From NCBI GenBank assembly GCA_913775265.1, contig CAJYJH010000068.1, positions 62,001 to 126,000 of the forward strand: a DNA stretch of 64,000 nucleotides, given 5' to 3'. Below are positions 6,342-54,570 of the stretch, piece after piece. The notes beneath the pieces were generated by a model. That model was given only the letters and a program-made list of their open reading frames with translations, made no database searches and was not told the DNA's origin. Both the position numbers and the translations under genes were made by a program. This DNA comes from an uncultured Mucilaginibacter sp. Lineage in GTDB: Bacteria; Bacteroidota; Bacteroidia; Sphingobacteriales; Sphingobacteriaceae. The stretch's first letter is position 1. The number at the start of each line of letters is the position of its first letter.

Positions 6342-7850
6342 ATGGCCAATAAAAATTTTGACTCTGAGTTTTGCGGAAGCTTGCCCCTGCATCATGTAAA
6401 TATGATACAGCCGCATGGTTATTTACTGGTGCTAAATACAGACAGTCTGGATATTATTCAGGTTAGTGAGAACATAAGTGACCTATTACAGGCCGAAGCT
6501 GCGAGCATTATCAATACTAACATAGATCAATACATACCGTCTGCTCAGTTAGACGATCTGAGCAGTAAACTGAATACGGGAATCAAAAACAAAATCCCCG
6601 TTACCCTTAGCATGAACAACAAGCCTGTATTGGCTTTAGTGCATGCCCATCCTAATTATTTGCTGATTGAACTGGAAGTTGCCAACCATGGTACTGACCG
6701 CACTTTCATTAACGTATTTGAAGAGGTAAAATATGTAATGGCCGCTATCGAACTAGCCACTTCGGTTAAAGAGGCCTGCGAAATTGCCATACATGAGTTA
6801 AGGCGTATATCAGGTTTTGATGGCATTATGATGTACCGGTTTGACGCAAACTGGAATGGCACTGTCATTGCCGAAGAAAAAAGTAAAGGCCTGGAAGAAT
6901 ACCTGGGTGTTACCTTCCCGGCATCTGATGTACCTAAACAGGCTCGTCAGCTTTATTTAAAAAACCCGTATCGTTTAATTCCTAACCGTGATTATACGCC
7001 GGTTAGGTTATATCCTATTTTAAACCCGGTTACCAACTCGTTTACCGATTTGTCCGACTGTAATTTGCGTAGCGTTGCAGCAGTACACCTGGAGTATTTA
7101 AAAAACATGGGTATTACTGCGTCTATGTCAGTAAGGGTAATACACAACGAAAATTTGTGGGGTTTAATATCCTGCCACCATGCATCGCCTAACTATTTGA
7201 GTTTTGAGATACGTTCCATATTCGAATTACTATCGAGCGTAATCTCAAATAAAATATCATCTATCATTAATAAAGACGATTACGATTATGTGGCCAGCCT
7301 GCAAAGTCGCCGTAATTTGCTGATAGAACAGACCTACACTAATAATGATCTGGTAGAAGGCCTTTTACGCCAGGACGAAAGCCTGCTAACACTGTTTAGC
7401 GCTACCGGCGCCGTAATTTATTTAGACGGACAGGTAAGCACCGCCGGGACCGTACCGGACAAGGAAATGCTCGAAAATCTGCAATTGTGGTTACAGGCTA
7501 AAGGCATTGACAAGGTATACAGCACTAAACAATTGTCTGAAACTTTTGATGAAGCATTAGAGTTTACAGATATCGCCAGCGGCATGTTGGCTATCCCGAT
7601 TGATGCGGATACCGGCGACTATATTGTTTGTTTCAGGCCGGAAGTGATTCACACTATTGAGTGGGGTGGCGACCCGAACAATGCCATTAATTTTGAAGAA
7701 AACGGATTAAATTATCATCCGCGCAACTCTTTTAAAGTTTGGTTAGAAACCGTAAATCAAAGTTCTTTGCCCTGGCATGAACAAGAGTTGGTAATTGCCG
7801 AAACTTTCAGGAGTTTTGTATTTGAATATAAAACTAAACAAGTTTTATAG
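6342..7850 (+). CDS. Bacteriophytochrome photosensory module (PAS-GAF-PHY) with no output domain
   Basis: CGSLPLHHVNMIQPHGYLLVL with a Cys at the canonical biliverdin-attachment spacing; GAF EEYLGVTFPASDVPKQARQLYLKNPYRLI and LRSVAAVHLEYLKNMGITASMSV...LWGLISCHH; PHY tongue WGGDPN...HPRNSFKVW; ends at the PHY C-terminus. Confidence 0.93.
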   Translation: MANKNFDSEFCGSLPLHHVNMIQPHGYLLVLNTDSLDIIQVSENISDLLQAEAASIINTNIDQYIPSAQLDDLSSKLNTGIKNKIPVTLSMNNKPVLALVHAHPNYLLIELEVANHGTDRTFINVFEEVKYVMAAIELATSVKEACEIAIHELRRISGFDGIMMYRFDANWNGTVIAEEKSKGLEEYLGVTFPASDVPKQARQLYLKNPYRLIPNRDYTPVRLYPILNPVTNSFTDLSDCNLRSVAAVHLEYLKNMGITASMSVRVIHNENLWGLISCHHASPNYLSFEIRSIFELLSSVISNKISSIINKDDYDYVASLQSRRNLLIEQTYTNNDLVEGLLRQDESLLTLFSATGAVIYLDGQVSTAGTVPDKEMLENLQLWLQAKGIDKVYSTKQLSETFDEALEFTDIASGMLAIPIDADTGDYIVCFRPEVIHTIEWGGDPNNAINFEENGLNYHPRNSFKVWLETVNQSSLPWHEQELVIAETFRSFVFEYKTKQVL

Positions 7851-7866
7851 TTTTTTTGCTGATCGT

Positions 7867-10800
7867 ATGAATAAAGAGTTGAGAAAGCATGTTGCCAACG
7901 GCACTGCAGGTAAGTTTACCGATAACTATGTAGTAGCTATCGGCGCTTCTGCAGGCGGATTGGAAGCTATCCATGAGTTTTTTGATCACATGCCGGGTAA
8001 CTCCAGTTTCTCTTTTATTATCATACAGCATCTGTCGTCAGATTATAAAAGCCTGCTGGTTGAGCTGGTTTCCAAACACACTCACATGAAAGTGTTTGAA
8101 GCCACCGAAAACATGAGTCTGCAGCCTGATTGTGTTTACATCATCCCGAACAATAAACTCATTACTGTAAATAACAACCGCTTAAAACTTGCTGAAAAGA
8201 GCCACGAAAAAGTACCTAACACTGCCATCGATAACTTTTTGTTTTCGCTGGCGCACGATAAGCATGAAAAGGCTATCGCCATTATATTATCAGGTACCGG
8301 TACCGATGGGACTAAAGGCATCGAAGCCATCAAAGAATGCGGCGGCATGGTGATTGTTCAGGACCCCGAAACGGCCAAATTTGACGGGATGCCTAAAAGT
8401 GCTATCACTTCGGGTAATGCCGACATCGTTACCTCGCCGGCTAAAATACATGAAGAGCTTTTTGCCTATGTAAAAGAAGAACCCATCCAGATTTTAGAAA
8501 ACGGCAAGGTCAACGACGAGCTTTTTAATGAAATATTTCAATTGGTACACCAGCAAAGCGGGCACGATTTTAACTTATATAAAACACCCACCATCATCAG
8601 GCGTATTGCACGCCGTATGAGTTTTGTGGGCATCCGTACGCTGGAGAAATACACTGAATACCTGCAGGAAAACACGGAAGAAGTAAAAGCCTTAGGCAAA
8701 GACTTTTTAATTGGCGTAACCCGCTTTTTTAGAGATAAAGCAGCTTTTGAGCTACTGGCCGATAAGGTCTTACCGGAAATAATTGACGGCAAAGAAGAAG
8801 GTGAAACCCTTAAGGTATGGATTTGTGCCTGTAGCACCGGTGAGGAAGCATACTCAGTAGCTATATTGATTGATCAGTACCTACAGCGTAAAAACAAAGA
8901 ACTTGAAGTAAAAATATTTGCTACAGATATTGATGAAGCCAGTTTAGATGTAGCTTCGCATAACACCTACCCTGAAGCGATAGCTAAAGAAATTGCTCCG
9001 GATATATTGGAACAATATTTTGTAAAAGACGGCAGCCATTACACCGTTATACCAACCATACGCAAACAAATTGTGTTTGCCAGGCATAACGTAGCTAAAG
9101 CTCCCCCTTTTATTAAAAACGACTTGATTTGCTGCCGTAACATGCTCATTTACATGAACGTGCTTTTGCAGCAAAAGGTGCTTTCTACTTTCCATTTTTC
9201 GCTTAACCAGGGAGGGTATCTTTTCCTTGGCTCCAGCGAAACGGCTTCGGCTATTAAAGAGGGATTACACGAGGTAAGCAGCAAGTGGAAATTGTACCGC
9301 AAAATCGGCCCAATTAACCAGTCGACCACTAATAACTATTATAGTAGCAGCCCTACCGTTCCGCAAGAGATTAAGAGGCCGTTGCAGTCGGTAAAAAAAT
9401 CGACAGACACGTTATTTGCCGAATTTTTAACAACTACGCTGGGCTACGTAGGTGTTTTTGTTGACAAGAATTACGAGATTAAGGAAACTATAGGCGATTT
9501 TAAAAAATACCTGTCGCTACCCGAAAAAAAGCTGGAGCTTAACCTGCTCAAAATGGTTCCGCGCGAACTTTCGTTTACGCTTAATACCGCCATACGCACC
9601 GTTTGGAAAAACAACGAACCGGCTACCTTGAAGCGCATCAAAATAAAGCGCGACCAGGAAGATATTTACGTTAACATTTCCATCAATCCACCCAATAACG
9701 CTACATCATCAGCACTTACCTTAGTGCTGTTTAGCGAAACGGCGCTCGACCCGGCAGCTAAAGACCAGATTTTAATTCCGCTAACTACTGATGAACATCA
9801 AAGCGGTTACGTGGCAGAGCTGGAGTCGGAACTGAACGAAGTACGCGGCAACCTGCAAATGGCGGTGGAAGAAATGGAAACCACCAATGAAGAGCTGCAG
9901 TCGAGTAATGAAGAATTACTTTCGGCCAATGAAGAGCTGCAATCGAGTAACGAGGAGCTACAGTCGCTCAACGAGGAATTGCACACCCTCAACACCGAAC
10001 ATCAGCTTAAAATAAAGGACCTGATTGACCTTAACGACGACTTGAATAATTATTTTAAAAGTGTCGACATTGGTCAGATATTTATAGATACCCACTCGCT
10101 AATCCGCAAATTTAACCCGGCAGCAGTAAGTATGGTTAACCTGATTGAGGCCGACATAGGCCGACCAATAAGCCATATATCCAACAACATTAAATACGAT
10201 CACTTTTTGGATGATATTGCCCAGGTGCAATATCAACAGGATTTAGTGATTGAAAAAGAAATTGAACTTAAAAGCGGCAAGCACTGCCTGATGCGTATAC
10301 TTCCTTACGTACGTAAGGATAAACAAAAAGACGGTGTAGTGATTACGTTTGTAGACGTAAGTACCGTTACGGAGCTAAGTAACATTGTGGCCGGCGCATT
10401 TAATACCAGTTTAAGCGCTATTATAGTATTTAATGCAGTACGCAATCAACAAGGTCAGATTACTGATTTTGAATGCGTAACTACCAATAGTATGGCTTCC
10501 AAACTATTGGGCAAGCCTGAGGCTGATTTAAAGCATAGCCTGCTGGTTAAAAACCTGCCCGAGTTGCTGCAAAACAACCTGTTAGATCAGTTTAAAAAAG
10601 TAGTACAGTCGGGCCAGTACCTGCAAAACGAAATCCATTTCGAAAATAAGGGCTGGTACCTGGTAATGGCCAGCAAAATTGCAGATGGGTTTGCTGTAAC
10701 TTACACTGATATTACCGAACGTAAACTTAATGAGCAAAAGCTCAAAAAGAATTACAACGAGCTAATCAGCGCACGCGAAAACTTAAAAAAATTAAACAAC

Positions 10801-12729
10801 GAGTTAGAAGATAAAATTAAGGAGCGCACCTTACGCCTTTCTCAAAGCGAGGAGCGCTTTAAGCTGGTGTCGCAAGCTACTAATGATACCATCTGGGACT
10901 GGAACCTGGTAACCAACGTAATGTGGCGGAGCGACAATTTTACCGCCATGTTTGGTTATCATAGTAACGATGATACCAGCAACGTAAATTTCTGGTTCAG
11001 TAAAATACATCCAGACGATCGCACGCAGGTTGAGAAGAGCGTTCATGACGCGATCAATAGCGGCAAGAAAAATTGGTCGGCTGAGTACCGCTTTTTGAAA
11101 GCTGATGGCAACTATGCTGTGATCCTTGATCGTGGCAGTATTTTGCACGATAACTACCACACTCCTTTCCGGATGGTAGGCTCTATTGTGGACATCAGCC
11201 GTATTACCGAAGCCGAACGAAGGGTAAATAACAGCGAAAACCGTTTCAAAAAAATCTACGAGTCAAACATGATCGGTATGTTATTCGCCGATTTTAACGG
11301 CAACATCGTAGATGCCAACAATGCTTTTCTGGACATGCTCGGCTATACGCTCGAAGATATTCATCAGGGCCGTTTATCCTGGGATGAAATTACACCGCCC
11401 GACCAAAAGGCTATCAGCGACAGAGCTATTGAACAGTTACAAGCCGACGGATATTGCGCTCCTTTCGAAAAAGAATATATCAAGAAAGATGGCACCAAGC
11501 TCCCGGTATTGATGGGCTCTGCCAAATTGGAAGATGACCATATATCGGATGCGGTAACGTATGTAATTGACTTATCGAGCCAGAAAGAAGCTGAAAAGAA
11601 TCGGATCGAACTTCAAAGTCTGATAAAAAAACAGCAGGAAGAGTTTTACAGCATTTTCATGAATGCACCGGCATTGATCAGCATTCGCCGCGGTGCCGAT
11701 TTGAGGTACGAGTTTACCAATAAAGCATTTGAGGACTTTTTTAACCGGCACGACTTTATTGGTCGTACCACGCAGGAAGCACACGCTGATTTTAACTTCA
11801 AACATTTATTTGCCGACGATAAAAAAATCATCAATAAGGGCATCACCCATACAGGAAAAGCCTTTAACGTAAAACGCATTGACAGCATCAGCGGTCACTT
11901 GGTTGACACCTGGCTGGACTTTCTGTTTACCCCGGTTTTTGACAACTATGGAAATATTGACGGCGTTGCATTTTTCGGCTTTGAAGTGACAGATTTGGTT
12001 AAGGCTCAGCAAGCAACCAAAGAGCTTATGCACCGTAAAGATGAGTTTATGAGTATTGCCAGCCACGAGCTTAAAACGCCAATCACCAGTTTAAAAGGCT
12101 CGTTGCAGATTGTTCAGAGGCTGGCACATAACGAAAACACGGTGAATAAAATATTTCCGTTCATCGAAAAGGCCAGCAAGCAAACCGGTAAACTTACCTC
12201 GTTAGTAGAAGACCTATTGGATGTTACCCGTATACACGCGGGCAAAATGCGTTTTAATTACAGCTGGTTTAATGCCGGCGACATGATACGCGAATGCATT
12301 GAAGATACGCAATCGCATACTTCTACACATAAATTTGTAATTGAGGGAGAGGCAAACGTTCAGATCTACGCAGATAAGCACCGCCTGGAGCAGGTATTGA
12401 GCAATTTTGCATCAAATGCTGTAAAGTATTCTCCGGACACGCCAGATATCATTGTTAAGCAGGAAGTTACTGAAAATAATATGCTTAAGCTTTCGGTGAA
12501 GGACTTTGGCATTGGTATCCCGGCCGAGAAAAAAGATATGGTATTCGACCGCTTTTTCCGGGTGCAGGAGTCATCTCAAAAATTCTCGGGCTTAGGTTTA
12601 GGCTTGTACATCACCGCCGAAATTATCCATCGCCATTATGGTAAAATAGGTGTAGACAGTGTAGAAGGCGAAGGTTCAACCTTTTGGTTCTGTATACCAC
12701 TCATTCAGACGGAAGAACAGTTAGATTAA
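7867..12729 (+). CDS. CheB methylesterase - CheR methyltransferase - coiled coil - multi-PAS - histidine kinase fusion
   Basis: CheB GASAGGLEAI, IIQHLSS, LSGTGTDGTKGIEAIKECGG; CheR FLIGVTRFFRD, WICACSTGEEAYS, FATDIDEASL, NDLICCRNMLIYM; NEELQSSNEELLSANEEL coiled coil; PAS repeats; HisKA SIASHELKTPITSLKG; HATPase NFASNAVKYS, DFGIGIP, GLGLGLYI. Start at ATG 7867. Confidence 0.95.
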   Translation: MNKELRKHVANGTAGKFTDNYVVAIGASAGGLEAIHEFFDHMPGNSSFSFIIIQHLSSDYKSLLVELVSKHTHMKVFEATENMSLQPDCVYIIPNNKLITVNNNRLKLAEKSHEKVPNTAIDNFLFSLAHDKHEKAIAIILSGTGTDGTKGIEAIKECGGMVIVQDPETAKFDGMPKSAITSGNADIVTSPAKIHEELFAYVKEEPIQILENGKVNDELFNEIFQLVHQQSGHDFNLYKTPTIIRRIARRMSFVGIRTLEKYTEYLQENTEEVKALGKDFLIGVTRFFRDKAAFELLADKVLPEIIDGKEEGETLKVWICACSTGEEAYSVAILIDQYLQRKNKELEVKIFATDIDEASLDVASHNTYPEAIAKEIAPDILEQYFVKDGSHYTVIPTIRKQIVFARHNVAKAPPFIKNDLICCRNMLIYMNVLLQQKVLSTFHFSLNQGGYLFLGSSETASAIKEGLHEVSSKWKLYRKIGPINQSTTNNYYSSSPTVPQEIKRPLQSVKKSTDTLFAEFLTTTLGYVGVFVDKNYEIKETIGDFKKYLSLPEKKLELNLLKMVPRELSFTLNTAIRTVWKNNEPATLKRIKIKRDQEDIYVNISINPPNNATSSALTLVLFSETALDPAAKDQILIPLTTDEHQSGYVAELESELNEVRGNLQMAVEEMETTNEELQSSNEELLSANEELQSSNEELQSLNEELHTLNTEHQLKIKDLIDLNDDLNNYFKSVDIGQIFIDTHSLIRKFNPAAVSMVNLIEADIGRPISHISNNIKYDHFLDDIAQVQYQQDLVIEKEIELKSGKHCLMRILPYVRKDKQKDGVVITFVDVSTVTELSNIVAGAFNTSLSAIIVFNAVRNQQGQITDFECVTTNSMASKLLGKPEADLKHSLLVKNLPELLQNNLLDQFKKVVQSGQYLQNEIHFENKGWYLVMASKIADGFAVTYTDITERKLNEQKLKKNYNELISARENLKKLNNELEDKIKERTLRLSQSEERFKLVSQATNDTIWDWNLVTNVMWRSDNFTAMFGYHSNDDTSNVNFWFSKIHPDDRTQVEKSVHDAINSGKKNWSAEYRFLKADGNYAVILDRGSILHDNYHTPFRMVGSIVDISRITEAERRVNNSENRFKKIYESNMIGMLFADFNGNIVDANNAFLDMLGYTLEDIHQGRLSWDEITPPDQKAISDRAIEQLQADGYCAPFEKEYIKKDGTKLPVLMGSAKLEDDHISDAVTYVIDLSSQKEAEKNRIELQSLIKKQQEEFYSIFMNAPALISIRRGADLRYEFTNKAFEDFFNRHDFIGRTTQEAHADFNFKHLFADDKKIINKGITHTGKAFNVKRIDSISGHLVDTWLDFLFTPVFDNYGNIDGVAFFGFEVTDLVKAQQATKELMHRKDEFMSIASHELKTPITSLKGSLQIVQRLAHNENTVNKIFPFIEKASKQTGKLTSLVEDLLDVTRIHAGKMRFNYSWFNAGDMIRECIEDTQSHTSTHKFVIEGEANVQIYADKHRLEQVLSNFASNAVKYSPDTPDIIVKQEVTENNMLKLSVKDFGIGIPAEKKDMVFDRFFRVQESSQKFSGLGLGLYITAEIIHRHYGKIGVDSVEGEGSTFWFCIPLIQTEEQLD

Positions 12730-14102: not shown

Positions 14103-16514
14103 CTATAGTTTAACAGATTGTACTGCAACATTATCAAATATCTTATTTTTTGAGATATGATAAGAAATTTTGGCGTGTAACTCATCAGGTAAAAAGGGCT
14201 TTACCAAAATATCATTTATACCGTTTATAGCTAAGTCAAACCCAATTTCGGAAGGCAGCGTTGCTGTTAAAGCTATGATAGGAGTATTTATACCTCTACG
14301 GCGCATCATATTAGCCGATTGATAACCATCCATTACGGGCATGTGTATATCCATCAAAATAAGTTGATGACGATCAACATCTAATTTATCAAGTGCTTCC
14401 TGTCCGTTCACGGCCACTTCTACAGACGCTCCCCAACGTTTTAAAAATGCTTGGGCCACCATTACGTTCATGGGATTATCTTCGGCCAATAAAATATGTA
14501 CTCCTGCAAACGGCTTAGCGTTTTCGGCAGGCTTAGGTTCAATTATTTTAGGCTGGGTAATGTCGCCTGCCTTCTCATATCGTTGGTTAAAAAAGAAATT
14601 GGATCCTTTGCCTTCCTTACTTATTAACTGCAAAGATGAGTGCTGCAGCTCGAGTATTCGTTTACAAATAGACAAACCTAAACCCGTACCACCGAAACCT
14701 CTTGATGTGGAGGAATCTGCCTGGGTAAAGCGTTCAAATATCAATGCTTGCTTTTCTTTAGATATACCTATACCGGTATCTTTCACCTCAATACATAGCG
14801 CTATGTCATGCTCAGTTTGCGACCTTACTGTTACAGATAAAGTTACCGTGCCTTTCAAAGTAAATTTGATGGCGTTATGCACCAGGTTGGTAATCACCTG
14901 CGAGGTACGGGTAGGATCGCCGAAAACGGTATTCTTTAAGCTGGCATCTAAATCCAGTTTTAAATCCAAACCCTTATCCTGCGCGGCAGCTTCCAAGCTT
15001 TTGATCACAGCGCCAGCCAGCCCGGCTATATCCATCTCAATATTTTCGAAAGCAATTTTCCCGGCTTCTATTTTACTGTAGTCTAAAATATCATTAACAA
15101 TGTTGAGCAGGTTGTTGGCAGAAAATATCATTGCGTTGAGATGTTCCTGCTGATCGGCCCGGGGTTCGCTCTTAAGTAGCAGATGACTTAAACCTATTAC
15201 AGAATTTAAAGGCGTTCGGATTTCATGACTCATGGTACTCAAAAACTCAGATTTTGCTTTTAAACCTTCGGCGGCCTGCGAATTAGCACGCTTAAGCGTA
15301 AATGATACCCTGTGCGACAACACCAATGACTGCAAAAAGAAAAACGTCATGTAGCCGATAAAATTCACCATTGGCATCTGTGGCAAAATACCCCAGTAAT
15401 GTAGCAGCGTGATAATAAATATAGACATCAGTACAAAACTGCTGATTAATGAATAGGCAGCTCCCGGCCGATGATTACGATAGGCCTTTACATACAGGTA
15501 AGGCACATAAAATATGCAAACTACCGCAACCACAATAAACGGGTTTATTAGCTGCGTAAAATACCATGGGCTCAACAACAAAGTAGCTATTACAAATGCC
15601 CCGCAGACAATACCTACACTGTATACTATCTTACTGTTTTGATCTTTTGGATACAAGTAGTGACAATAAAAGCCAAATAAGCCTATCCCCGCGAACAGAC
15701 TGATATACTCGAGCTTAATAGTTAAATACCAGTTTAAATGTGGCATTAAAGTATGCAGTACGTAATTATCTGTACCTAAAATCCGGTAGCTGTACACAAT
15801 GGAAAACAGCGCAAACATCAGGATAGCTTTGTCACGGTTTCCAAATAAGTATAAACCTAAAAAAAAGAGTCCGGCCATTAACAAACAGCCCGTCAGTAAC
15901 AAATCAATAGCATTGGAACGAAAACTATTGAGTTCAATAATTTTCTTGGTCCCGATAAGTATTGACTGGTTGGTACCTCCTTTGCTATGTACAAAATTAG
16001 CAATCTGTAAAAGCAGCTTAAGTGTATCTGTTTTGGCCGGTATGTCTACTTCGTTAACCTGCCAGTGCGGAACAAAATTTTTAGCCGACGTAGTTACATT
16101 GCCGTTCTCGGCAACCAACTGACCATTGACATAAAAACGATAGGCACTATACACATCGGGCATGCTTAACTTTAACGGACTTGAATGGTGTGGAAGCAAG
16201 ACAGTAAGCCGGTAGGTGGCATAACCAACAGAAGAGATGGTATGGCCATTAGCCCTGATCGTTTTCCATAACGCCGGAAACTGCGCTGTGGTTGACTGCT
16301 TTTGATTGAACTGTGCAGGATCTAATAACTGTTTCCAGTTAAACAACCACTCACCGTCGAGATCTAAAACCTGGTTAAAAGATTGCTGACGTAAATCAAT
16401 CAACCCATTTTTGGCATATGGGGTGTATTTATTATTTAAGCTTGCGGCTGATAGATTGCTATTAAAAAATAATAGTGCAATAAAACATGTAAAAAAAGGC
16501 CGTAACAAGCGCAT
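14103..16514 (-). CDS. Hybrid histidine kinase with 7TMR-DISM sensor and C-terminal receiver domain
   Basis: LDLDGEWLFNWKQLLDP...YRLTVLLP extracellular domain, 7TM region, HisKA STMSHEIRTPLNSVIGLSHLL, HATPase DTGIGISKEKQALIFERFTQ...GTGLGLSICKRIL, REC ILLAEDNPMNVMVAQAFL...LILMDIHMPVMDG...ILVKPF. Confidence 0.93.
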   Translation of the reverse strand: MRLLRPFFTCFIALLFFNSNLSAASLNNKYTPYAKNGLIDLRQQSFNQVLDLDGEWLFNWKQLLDPAQFNQKQSTTAQFPALWKTIRANGHTISSVGYATYRLTVLLPHHSSPLKLSMPDVYSAYRFYVNGQLVAENGNVTTSAKNFVPHWQVNEVDIPAKTDTLKLLLQIANFVHSKGGTNQSILIGTKKIIELNSFRSNAIDLLLTGCLLMAGLFFLGLYLFGNRDKAILMFALFSIVYSYRILGTDNYVLHTLMPHLNWYLTIKLEYISLFAGIGLFGFYCHYLYPKDQNSKIVYSVGIVCGAFVIATLLLSPWYFTQLINPFIVVAVVCIFYVPYLYVKAYRNHRPGAAYSLISSFVLMSIFIITLLHYWGILPQMPMVNFIGYMTFFFLQSLVLSHRVSFTLKRANSQAAEGLKAKSEFLSTMSHEIRTPLNSVIGLSHLLLKSEPRADQQEHLNAMIFSANNLLNIVNDILDYSKIEAGKIAFENIEMDIAGLAGAVIKSLEAAAQDKGLDLKLDLDASLKNTVFGDPTRTSQVITNLVHNAIKFTLKGTVTLSVTVRSQTEHDIALCIEVKDTGIGISKEKQALIFERFTQADSSTSRGFGGTGLGLSICKRILELQHSSLQLISKEGKGSNFFFNQRYEKAGDITQPKIIEPKPAENAKPFAGVHILLAEDNPMNVMVAQAFLKRWGASVEVAVNGQEALDKLDVDRHQLILMDIHMPVMDGYQSANMMRRRGINTPIIALTATLPSEIGFDLAINGINDILVKPFLPDELHAKISYHISKNKIFDNVAVQSVKL

Positions 16515-16821
16515 AAGTATCATAAAATAAGTACGAGTGTATCAGAATATATTTCCGGCATCACCCGTACTGATTATGACGACTTTTACATCTTATAGAC
16601 GCCTCAGTATACAGTAGTAATCAGCGGGTTAGAATTATCTCTTTACGTTCAAATGTACATTTTACACAGCACATATAAAATTTAAAACCTCAAAAGAAAC
16701 AACATTATCTTACCTCATCCTATTATTTAACAAAGGGTTAAAATCGGCAAATTGTCATAAGTAAATATTGAACAAACACCCCTAATTGCCGATTGTAAAA
16801 TGTAAACGCTAAACAACATTT

Positions 16822-54204: not shown

Positions 54205-54570
54205 GTGAAGATTATTGTTATTGAAGACAATCCGGACATCAGTGAAATCATGGACTATATCCTTAAAGATGAGGGATATGAAGTTATTTCGTCTGAAGAT
54301 GGAACTATCACCAACAGTTTTGAAGAATTAAAGCCAGACCTGGTTTTGATGGACGAACTTTTGCCAGGCAAACGTGGCAGCGAGTGGTGCCAGCATATCA
54401 AAGCAACACCTTCATTACAGCATATTCCGGTTATACTGGTATCTACTATGCCAAACCTTGAACAACTTGCACAGAAAAGCGGCGCTGATGCTTTTTTAGA
54501 AAAACCTTTTAATATCAGCAGCTTAGGTACGCTTATACGCGAGTTTGCCGCCAAAAAGAGCAAGATATAA
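54205..54570 (+). CDS. Single-domain response regulator
   Basis: KIIVIEDNPDISEIMDYIL...LVLMDELLPGKRGSEWC...VILVSTM...GADAFLEKPF; GTG start. Confidence 0.92.
   Translation: MKIIVIEDNPDISEIMDYILKDEGYEVISSEDGTITNSFEELKPDLVLMDELLPGKRGSEWCQHIKATPSLQHIPVILVSTMPNLEQLAQKSGADAFLEKPFNISSLGTLIREFAAKKSKI

What the first reader, a model, noticed from the sequence alone, without database searches (positions are those of the whole stretch)
6342..12729. Output-less phytochrome paired with a CheB-CheR-PAS-histidine kinase
The 502-aa phytochrome has PAS-GAF-PHY, with a Cys at the canonical biliverdin spacing from IQPHG and the PHY PRxSF motif, but stops at the end of PHY with no kinase, GGDEF or other effector. 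Sixteen bp later begins a ~1620-aa protein with apparently intact CheB and CheR motifs (no receiver), a NEELQSS coiled coil, several PAS domains and HisKA/HATPase. No chemoreceptor, CheA/CheW or flagellar gene is in the window. A photoreceptor acting in trans on a methylation-capable kinase is a plausible, poorly described arrangement. In Bacteroidota this could link red light to gliding, surface or stress responses.
Basis: partly seen in the sequence, partly recalled or inferred. Interest (0 to 1): 0.62.

Follow-up and report, generated by a model that had tools for sequence, protein, structure and literature searches.

The report
Split light-sensing kinase with adaptation enzymes
These soil-type Bacteroidota carry a red-light sensor that has lost its own signalling part and is almost always encoded beside a separate giant kinase that also contains the two enzymes bacteria use to adapt in chemotaxis, so light sensing here is probably done by two proteins and could adapt by methylation.

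Summary
The 502-aa PAS-GAF-PHY protein ends where the PHY domain ends. A 1620-aa CheB-CheR-coil-PAS-HisKA-HATPase protein starts 16 bp later.

The pairing is conserved. Of 73 distinct short phytochromes from two Bacteroidota families, 72 have a kinase of this family directly downstream, and in 71 it carries CheB-CheR. Bilin, CheB, CheR and kinase residues are essentially invariant. The short phytochromes form one clade (100/100), and so do their CheB-CheR partners (100).

The fullest form is a four-gene operon: heme oxygenase, phytochrome, CheB-CheR kinase, single-domain response regulator. In the window's genome the outer two genes sit together on another contig.

Natural rearrangements show what is dispensable. 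Two genomes lost the sensor and kept the kinase. One kept the sensor beside a PAS-kinase without CheB-CheR. One fused a sensor of this clade to a kinase domain closest to the partner kinases.

Most likely (0.72) the phytochrome is the trans-acting light input of this kinase. The genome has no CheW/CheA, so CheB-CheR probably adjust the kinase's own invariant EExxSS-heptad helix (inferred, about 0.35). No interaction, photochemistry or methylation is shown. Output-less phytochromes and kinase-helix methylation (RsbM-RsbK) are known separately; this combination was not found in the papers held.

The parts
6342..7850 (+). Output-less bacteriophytochrome, 502 aa: PAS_2 (6378-6680), GAF (6768-7247), PHY (7308-7826); candidate biliverdin Cys11 codon 6372-6374
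   Evidence: Pfam; bilin-pocket residues conserved in 57 orthologs; AlphaFold model matches solved phytochrome PAS-GAF-PHY modules
7851..7866 (+). 16-bp gap between the two genes
   Evidence: Sequence; gap median 8.5 nt, range -161 to 79, in 72 loci
7867..12729 (+). CheB-CheR-coil-PAS-histidine kinase, 1620 aa
   Evidence: Pfam
7933..8460 (+). CheB methylesterase domain (aa 23-198), Ser28/His55/Asp147, no receiver domain
   Evidence: Pfam; triad 56/56 conserved; fold match to CheB
8524..9288 (+). CheR methyltransferase (aa 220-474)
   Evidence: Pfam; SAM-site and catalytic-site residues conserved; fold match to CheR
9403..9738 (+). Possible PAS-like domain (aa 513-624), not seen by Pfam
   Evidence: Secondary-structure order and PAS-helix-PAS fold matches, moderate confidence
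9799..10062 (+). Long helix (aa 645-732) with EExxSS-type heptads at residues 668, 675, 682 and 689: candidate CheR/CheB substrate
   Evidence: Predicted helix; core coil is the most conserved region, 0.98; motif positions
10042..10359 (+). PAS_10 domain (aa 726-831)
   Evidence: Pfam
10927..11184 (+). PAS_3 domain (aa 1021-1106)
   Evidence: Pfam
11275..11574 (+). PAS_9 domain (aa 1137-1236)
   Evidence: Pfam; PAS number varies among relatives
11686..11997 (+). PAS_4 domain (aa 1274-1377)
   Evidence: Pfam
12037..12243 (+). HisKA domain (aa 1391-1459), H-box SHELKTP
   Evidence: Pfam; H-box of this type in 30 of 31 complete relatives, the other has SHDLKEP
12373..12702 (+). HATPase_c domain (aa 1503-1612)
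   Evidence: Pfam

Best explanation
The two genes encode a split photoreceptor kinase. Heme oxygenase (in this genome on contig C65) makes biliverdin, which binds Cys11 of the 502-aa phytochrome. Red/far-red photoconversion moves the PHY tongue and the C-terminal helix. Because that helix ends at residue 502 instead of running into a kinase, the change is passed by protein contact to the separate CheB-CheR-PAS-HK protein. That alters its autophosphorylation and phosphotransfer to a single-domain response regulator (here beside the heme oxygenase on C65). The CheB and CheR domains probably set the kinase's sensitivity by demethylating and methylating glutamates in its own EExxSS heptad helix, which would give adaptation to steady light. 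Shown by sequence: gene pair, operon, residues, absence of CheW/CheA, natural fusions and losses. Inferred: photochemistry, contact, direction of control, choice of regulator, self-methylation.
For: Pair conserved in 72 of 73 loci over two families. Bilin residues Cys, Asp, His and Tyr invariant, with one His in 53/57. CheB, CheR and HK residues conserved. Short phytochromes are one clade, 100/100; their partners one clade, 100. The operon HO-PHY-CheBR-HK-RR occurs in several genera. In the window's genome HO and RR are adjacent on C65 at the site that elsewhere holds the whole operon. One locus has HO-RR convergent with CheBR-PHY. In G753 the partner is a PAS-HK without CheB-CheR. In G710 a phytochrome nested in the clade carries a kinase in cis. 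The HK outside G710 that best matches that kinase, among 28-109 candidates per genome, is the phytochrome partner of G816, and the partner ranks first in 7 of the other genomes. No CheW in the genome. The core coil is the most conserved region, with four consensus-like sites 7 residues apart.
Against: G006 and G034 lost heme oxygenase and phytochrome but kept CheBR-HK and RR, so the kinase can be kept without light input. The RR ortholog occurs in all 35 sampled genomes of the genus, most without the pair, so it has other partners too. RR adjoins the kinase in only 14 of 38 loci with full flank. The re-fused HK belongs to a common kinase subfamily and its tree position is unresolved. The coil is also conserved, less strongly, in CheB-CheR proteins outside the clade. 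No interface could be modelled.
Confidence: 0.72

Rival explanations
1. The phytochrome and kinase are only co-transcribed. The phytochrome signals to some other protein and the kinase senses something else through its PAS domains.
For: Kinase and RR survive loss of the phytochrome in two genera. One orphan phytochrome (G750) has no kinase beside it. No interface is shown.
Against: 72 of 73 adjacency over two families, a partner-type kinase fused to a phytochrome of this clade, and retention of a PAS-HK partner when CheB-CheR is missing.
Confidence: 0.14
2. The phytochrome controls the CheB-CheR enzymes rather than the kinase, so that methylation of the coil or of another protein is the light output.
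For: CheB, CheR and coil are kept while the PAS region varies. The N-terminal part of the kinase protein lies nearest the phytochrome gene.
Against: In G753 the phytochrome is kept with a partner that has no CheB-CheR or coil. In G710 the phytochrome is joined straight to a kinase.
Confidence: 0.1
3. CheB and CheR in this protein act on other targets in the cell, not on the kinase's own helix; the coil is only a dimerisation and signal helix.
For: The coil is present in CheB-CheR proteins outside the phytochrome-linked clade. Signal helices can be conserved for mechanical reasons (general knowledge).
Against: No CheW or CheA in the genome, which makes classical chemoreceptor targets unlikely. 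The core coil is more conserved than the enzyme domains themselves, and nearly all MCP-like consensus sites of the protein lie in it. RsbM methylation of the RsbK signalling helix is a precedent (PMC4574943).
Confidence: 0.25
4. The phytochrome is not used as a light sensor but as a biliverdin, heme or redox sensor of the kinase.
For: Linkage to heme oxygenase would also suit sensing of heme breakdown.
Against: The photochemically important pocket residues and the PRxSF and WGG tongue motifs are kept.
Confidence: 0.06

Closest known systems
Output-less bacteriophytochrome Cenrod_2641 of Candidatus Symbiobacter mobilis (PMC4053972)
   Same: PAS-GAF-PHY without output domain, in an operon with heme oxygenase; shown there to bind biliverdin and photoswitch
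   Different: No partner kinase is described in the passages read; gammaproteobacterial-type phytochrome; here the partner is a conserved CheB-CheR histidine kinase
Canonical bacteriophytochrome histidine kinases with heme oxygenase and response regulator operons (e.g. Myxococcus macrosporus BphP operon, PMC11832031)
   Same: Sensor module, heme oxygenase, kinase and receiver encoded together
   Different: There the phytochrome carries its own kinase; here the kinase is a separate protein with CheB, CheR and PAS domains. This genome has a canonical one too (contig C34)
CheB-CheR-PAS-histidine kinase fusion proteins of non-chemotactic bacteria
   Same: Same domain order and the NEEL-type coil; 35-45% identical over the first 726 residues in related genomes
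   Different: The others sampled form other branches (one, in G500, adjoins a canonical phytochrome kinase); the phytochrome-linked ones are one clade
RsbM-RsbK of Bacillus cereus (PMC4574943)
   Same: A methyltransferase methylates the signalling helix of a sensor kinase outside chemotaxis
   Different: RsbM is a separate protein and acts on a stress kinase; here CheR and CheB are in the same chain as the helix, and light is the proposed input

Membership tests
Bacteriophytochrome photosensory module | PAS-GAF-PHY domain order | tested here: met
   Pfam; top fold matches are phytochrome PAS-GAF-PHY modules
Bacteriophytochrome photosensory module | N-terminal biliverdin Cys, GAF Asp/His/Tyr pocket, PHY PRxSF and WGG tongue | tested here: met
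   57 of 57 conserved except one His at 53/57
Bacteriophytochrome photosensory module | Binds biliverdin and photoconverts | not testable with these tools
   Needs protein and spectra
Canonical phytochrome histidine kinase | Kinase or other output domain in the same chain | tested here: not met
   Stops at residue 502; same in all but one clade member
CheB-CheR-PAS histidine kinase | Intact CheB triad and CheR SAM/catalytic residues | tested here: met
   56 of 56 relatives; one CheR Glu is Gln in 13
CheB-CheR-PAS histidine kinase | HisKA phospho-acceptor His and ATP-binding N and G boxes | tested here: met
   Standard motifs in 30 of 31 complete relatives, the 31st has SHDLKEP
Classical chemosensory (Che) pathway | CheA and CheW in the genome | tested here: not met
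   No CheW domain in the genome; the control found it in 7 of 14 genomes
Classical chemosensory (Che) pathway | Chemoreceptors (MCPs) in the genome | not tested
Two-component system | Cognate response regulator linked to the kinase | tested here: inconclusive
   RR directly downstream in 12 and convergent in 2 of 38 loci; in the window genome on another contig beside heme oxygenase; also present in genomes without the pair

The most novel reading that the evidence does not exclude
A light-sensing kinase system whose photosensor is a separate subunit and whose sensitivity is reset by methylation and demethylation of its own signalling helix by CheR and CheB domains in the same chain: chemotaxis-style adaptation applied to a phytochrome signal without chemoreceptors, CheA or CheW.
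Probability: 0.3. Interest if true: 0.85.

Novelty: new variant of a known kind. Interest (0 to 1): 0.62.

Why it matters
It would show that the phytochrome sensory module can be an independent subunit with a dedicated kinase, maintained as such over two bacterial families, and that evolution has re-joined the two at least once. It also gives a clean system in which to test what the widespread, little-studied CheB-CheR-PAS kinases do: light can be switched on and off, so methylation-based adaptation of a sensor kinase becomes directly testable. For optogenetics, a natural two-part red-light kinase would be useful.

Tried and rejected
(1) A natural phytochrome-CheB-CheR fusion was sought. One search reported a 2134-aa open frame for G106, but the DNA has a stop between the two genes, so it is not a fusion. 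(2) Assigning the response regulator by co-occurrence alone failed: the ortholog is in all sampled genomes of the genus. Synteny and repeated linkage are the remaining evidence. (3) The tree of kinase domains did not resolve whether the G710 cis-kinase descends from the partner kinase; the ranked search supports it but is not proof, because the kinase subfamily is common. (4) Plasmid search with the phytochrome gave only distant hits under 60% identity, the listed ones at 33-35%. (5) AlphaFold models came from 13-14 sequences (mean pLDDT 74 and 65) and no complex could be modelled, so no docking site is claimed. (6) Literature: no paper held was found that links a phytochrome to a CheB-CheR kinase; subscription papers are not covered.
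Full report
OBSERVATION. The window lies in a 4.9-Mb genome; its nearest match in the named collection is an uncultured Mucilaginibacter MAG (94%), and the nearest named species is Mucilaginibacter aquatilis (66%). ORF 6342-7850 (+, 502 aa) has PAS_2, GAF and PHY and nothing beyond. Sixteen bp later 7867-12729 (+, 1620 aa) has CheB, CheR, several PAS domains, HisKA and HATPase_c, without receiver.

CONSERVATION OF THE PAIR. A search of 201 genomes of the family with the phytochrome gave two clean classes: proteins of about 500 aa at 44-100% identity, and canonical kinase-bearing phytochromes of about 740 aa at about 30% or less. Every short one examined in the family has the CheB-CheR kinase directly downstream on the same strand. 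A second Bacteroidota family (unnamed, f2) has it in 18 of 200 sampled genomes, with the kinase adjacent in all but the exceptions below. In all, 72 of 73 distinct short phytochromes have a kinase of this family next to them, median gap 8.5 nt, and 71 of those kinases carry CheB-CheR. A phylum sample of 396 genomes found no further family. Conversely, identity to the CheB-CheR-coil part (residues 1-726) is bimodal: 37 loci at 53% or more, of which 35 belong to the phytochrome pair, and all others at 45% or less.

FUNCTIONAL RESIDUES. In 57 short phytochromes the Cys, PASDVP Asp, Arg, His, Tyr and PHY motifs are invariant; one His is Asn in four. In 56 CheB-CheR proteins the CheB triad and CheR Arg, Asp, Asn and Tyr are invariant. 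Of 31 complete kinases, 30 have the HELKTP-type H-box and N and G boxes; the other has SHDLKEP. None of the parts looks degenerate.

HISTORY. The short phytochromes form one clade against kinase-bearing ones (support 100/100). The phytochrome-linked CheB-CheR proteins form one clade (SH-aLRT 100). So the pairing looks to have arisen once, and early relative to the sampled families.

OPERON. In at least ten genomes the order is heme oxygenase, phytochrome, CheB-CheR kinase, single-domain response regulator, with heme oxygenase and phytochrome usually overlapping (median 17 nt). In the window's genome the only heme oxygenase and the response regulator (86% identical to the operon one of L036) lie next to each other on contig C65. 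Their flanking TonB-like gene is the same one that flanks the complete operon in L036, L037, L038 and L184, and in L036 the upstream Mg-chelatase-like gene is shared too (these two gene names are by eye, not by family search). The window's two genes are therefore most simply read as the middle of a four-gene unit now located elsewhere. The opposite direction, insertion between heme oxygenase and regulator in other lineages, is not excluded. In G814 the same four genes lie side by side as two convergent pairs. The regulator is however present in all 35 sampled genomes of the genus, with or without the pair, so it is not exclusive to this kinase.

NATURAL EXPERIMENTS. (a) G006 and G034 keep CheB-CheR kinase and regulator in the same synteny but have lost heme oxygenase and phytochrome by different deletions that left remnants: residues 1-23 and 472-501 of the phytochrome in one, the first half of heme oxygenase and the phytochrome tail in the other. 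They nest within the clade. The kinase is thus useful without light. (b) G753 has heme oxygenase and phytochrome followed by a 795-aa PAS-kinase with no CheB, CheR or coil. (c) G710 has a phytochrome nested in the short clade but with a histidine kinase in the same chain. Searching that kinase domain against all kinases of 18 genomes, the best match outside G710 is the phytochrome partner of G816, a close relative by phytochrome tree. The partner ranks first in 7 and second in 3 of the 14 other genomes in which a partner kinase was matched, among 28-109 candidates each. The kinase tree itself is unresolved. Taken together these say that the kinase is the likely functional target of the sensor and that CheB-CheR is an added layer.

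THE COIL. Residues 645-732 are predicted as one 88-residue helix between PAS-like folds. Its core (676-713) is the most conserved part of the protein (0.98, against 0.82 for CheB and 0.73 for CheR), also in CheB-CheR proteins outside the clade (0.77 against 0.65 and 0.64), and it varies by whole heptads. All matches to the loose glutamate-methylation consensus in the window protein lie there, at 668, 675, 682 and 689, seven residues apart. [quoted passage not shown] The genome has no CheW domain and only one other CheR. Methylation of a kinase signalling helix outside chemotaxis is documented for RsbM-RsbK (PMC4574943). Self-methylation is thus a reasoned inference, not a result.

MECHANISM, BY STEP. 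Shown: gene content, order, conservation, intact residues, losses and fusion. Inferred: biliverdin binding and photoconversion (likely, from residues), contact between phytochrome and kinase (likely, from linkage and fusion), regulation of kinase activity and transfer to the regulator (plausible), adaptation by methylation of the coil (possible). The final output is unknown because the regulator is a bare receiver.

NOVELTY. Output-less phytochromes with heme oxygenase are known (Cenrod_2641, PMC4053972), as are heme oxygenase-phytochrome-kinase-regulator operons (PMC11832031) and CheB-CheR fusions. The dedicated pairing and its breadth were not found in the papers held. I rate it a new variant of a known kind.

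Noticed in passing
L108:6495-9145 (G000:C34): The same genome has a second, canonical phytochrome histidine kinase (743 aa) followed at once by a 139-aa ORF that overlaps a weak receiver match, so two phytochrome systems share one heme oxygenase gene.
   Followed up: partly
L176:3783-3916 and L177:6572-6941: Deletion scars of heme oxygenase and phytochrome in two genera that kept the CheB-CheR kinase and regulator.
   Followed up: yes
L089:6123-11999: In another Bacteroidota family a CheB-CheR-PAS kinase lies directly upstream of a canonical kinase-bearing phytochrome, a second kind of association of the two families.
   Followed up: partly
L232:4688-6946: Phytochrome of the short clade with a histidine kinase in the same chain, followed by heme oxygenase: an apparent re-fusion.
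   Followed up: yes
L090:5677-8256 and L091:6914-9847: Phytochromes with N-terminal extensions of about 100 and 220 residues before the PAS domain and small ORFs of 141-171 aa beside them; extension not identified.
   Followed up: no
L231:5045-6541: An orphan member of the short clade with no kinase, heme oxygenase or regulator found beside it.
   Followed up: no
window 14103-16523 (-): A 7TMR-DISM histidine kinase with receiver domain lies close downstream on the opposite strand; not seen beside the pair in relatives.
   Followed up: no
window 54205-54570 (+): Single-domain response regulator among polysaccharide genes (glycosyltransferase, Wzz-like, EpsG).
   Followed up: no
G000:C65:70238-71292 (-): Heme oxygenase and response regulator remain adjacent (110 bp apart) without the phytochrome and kinase, at the site that holds the whole operon in relatives.
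   Followed up: yes
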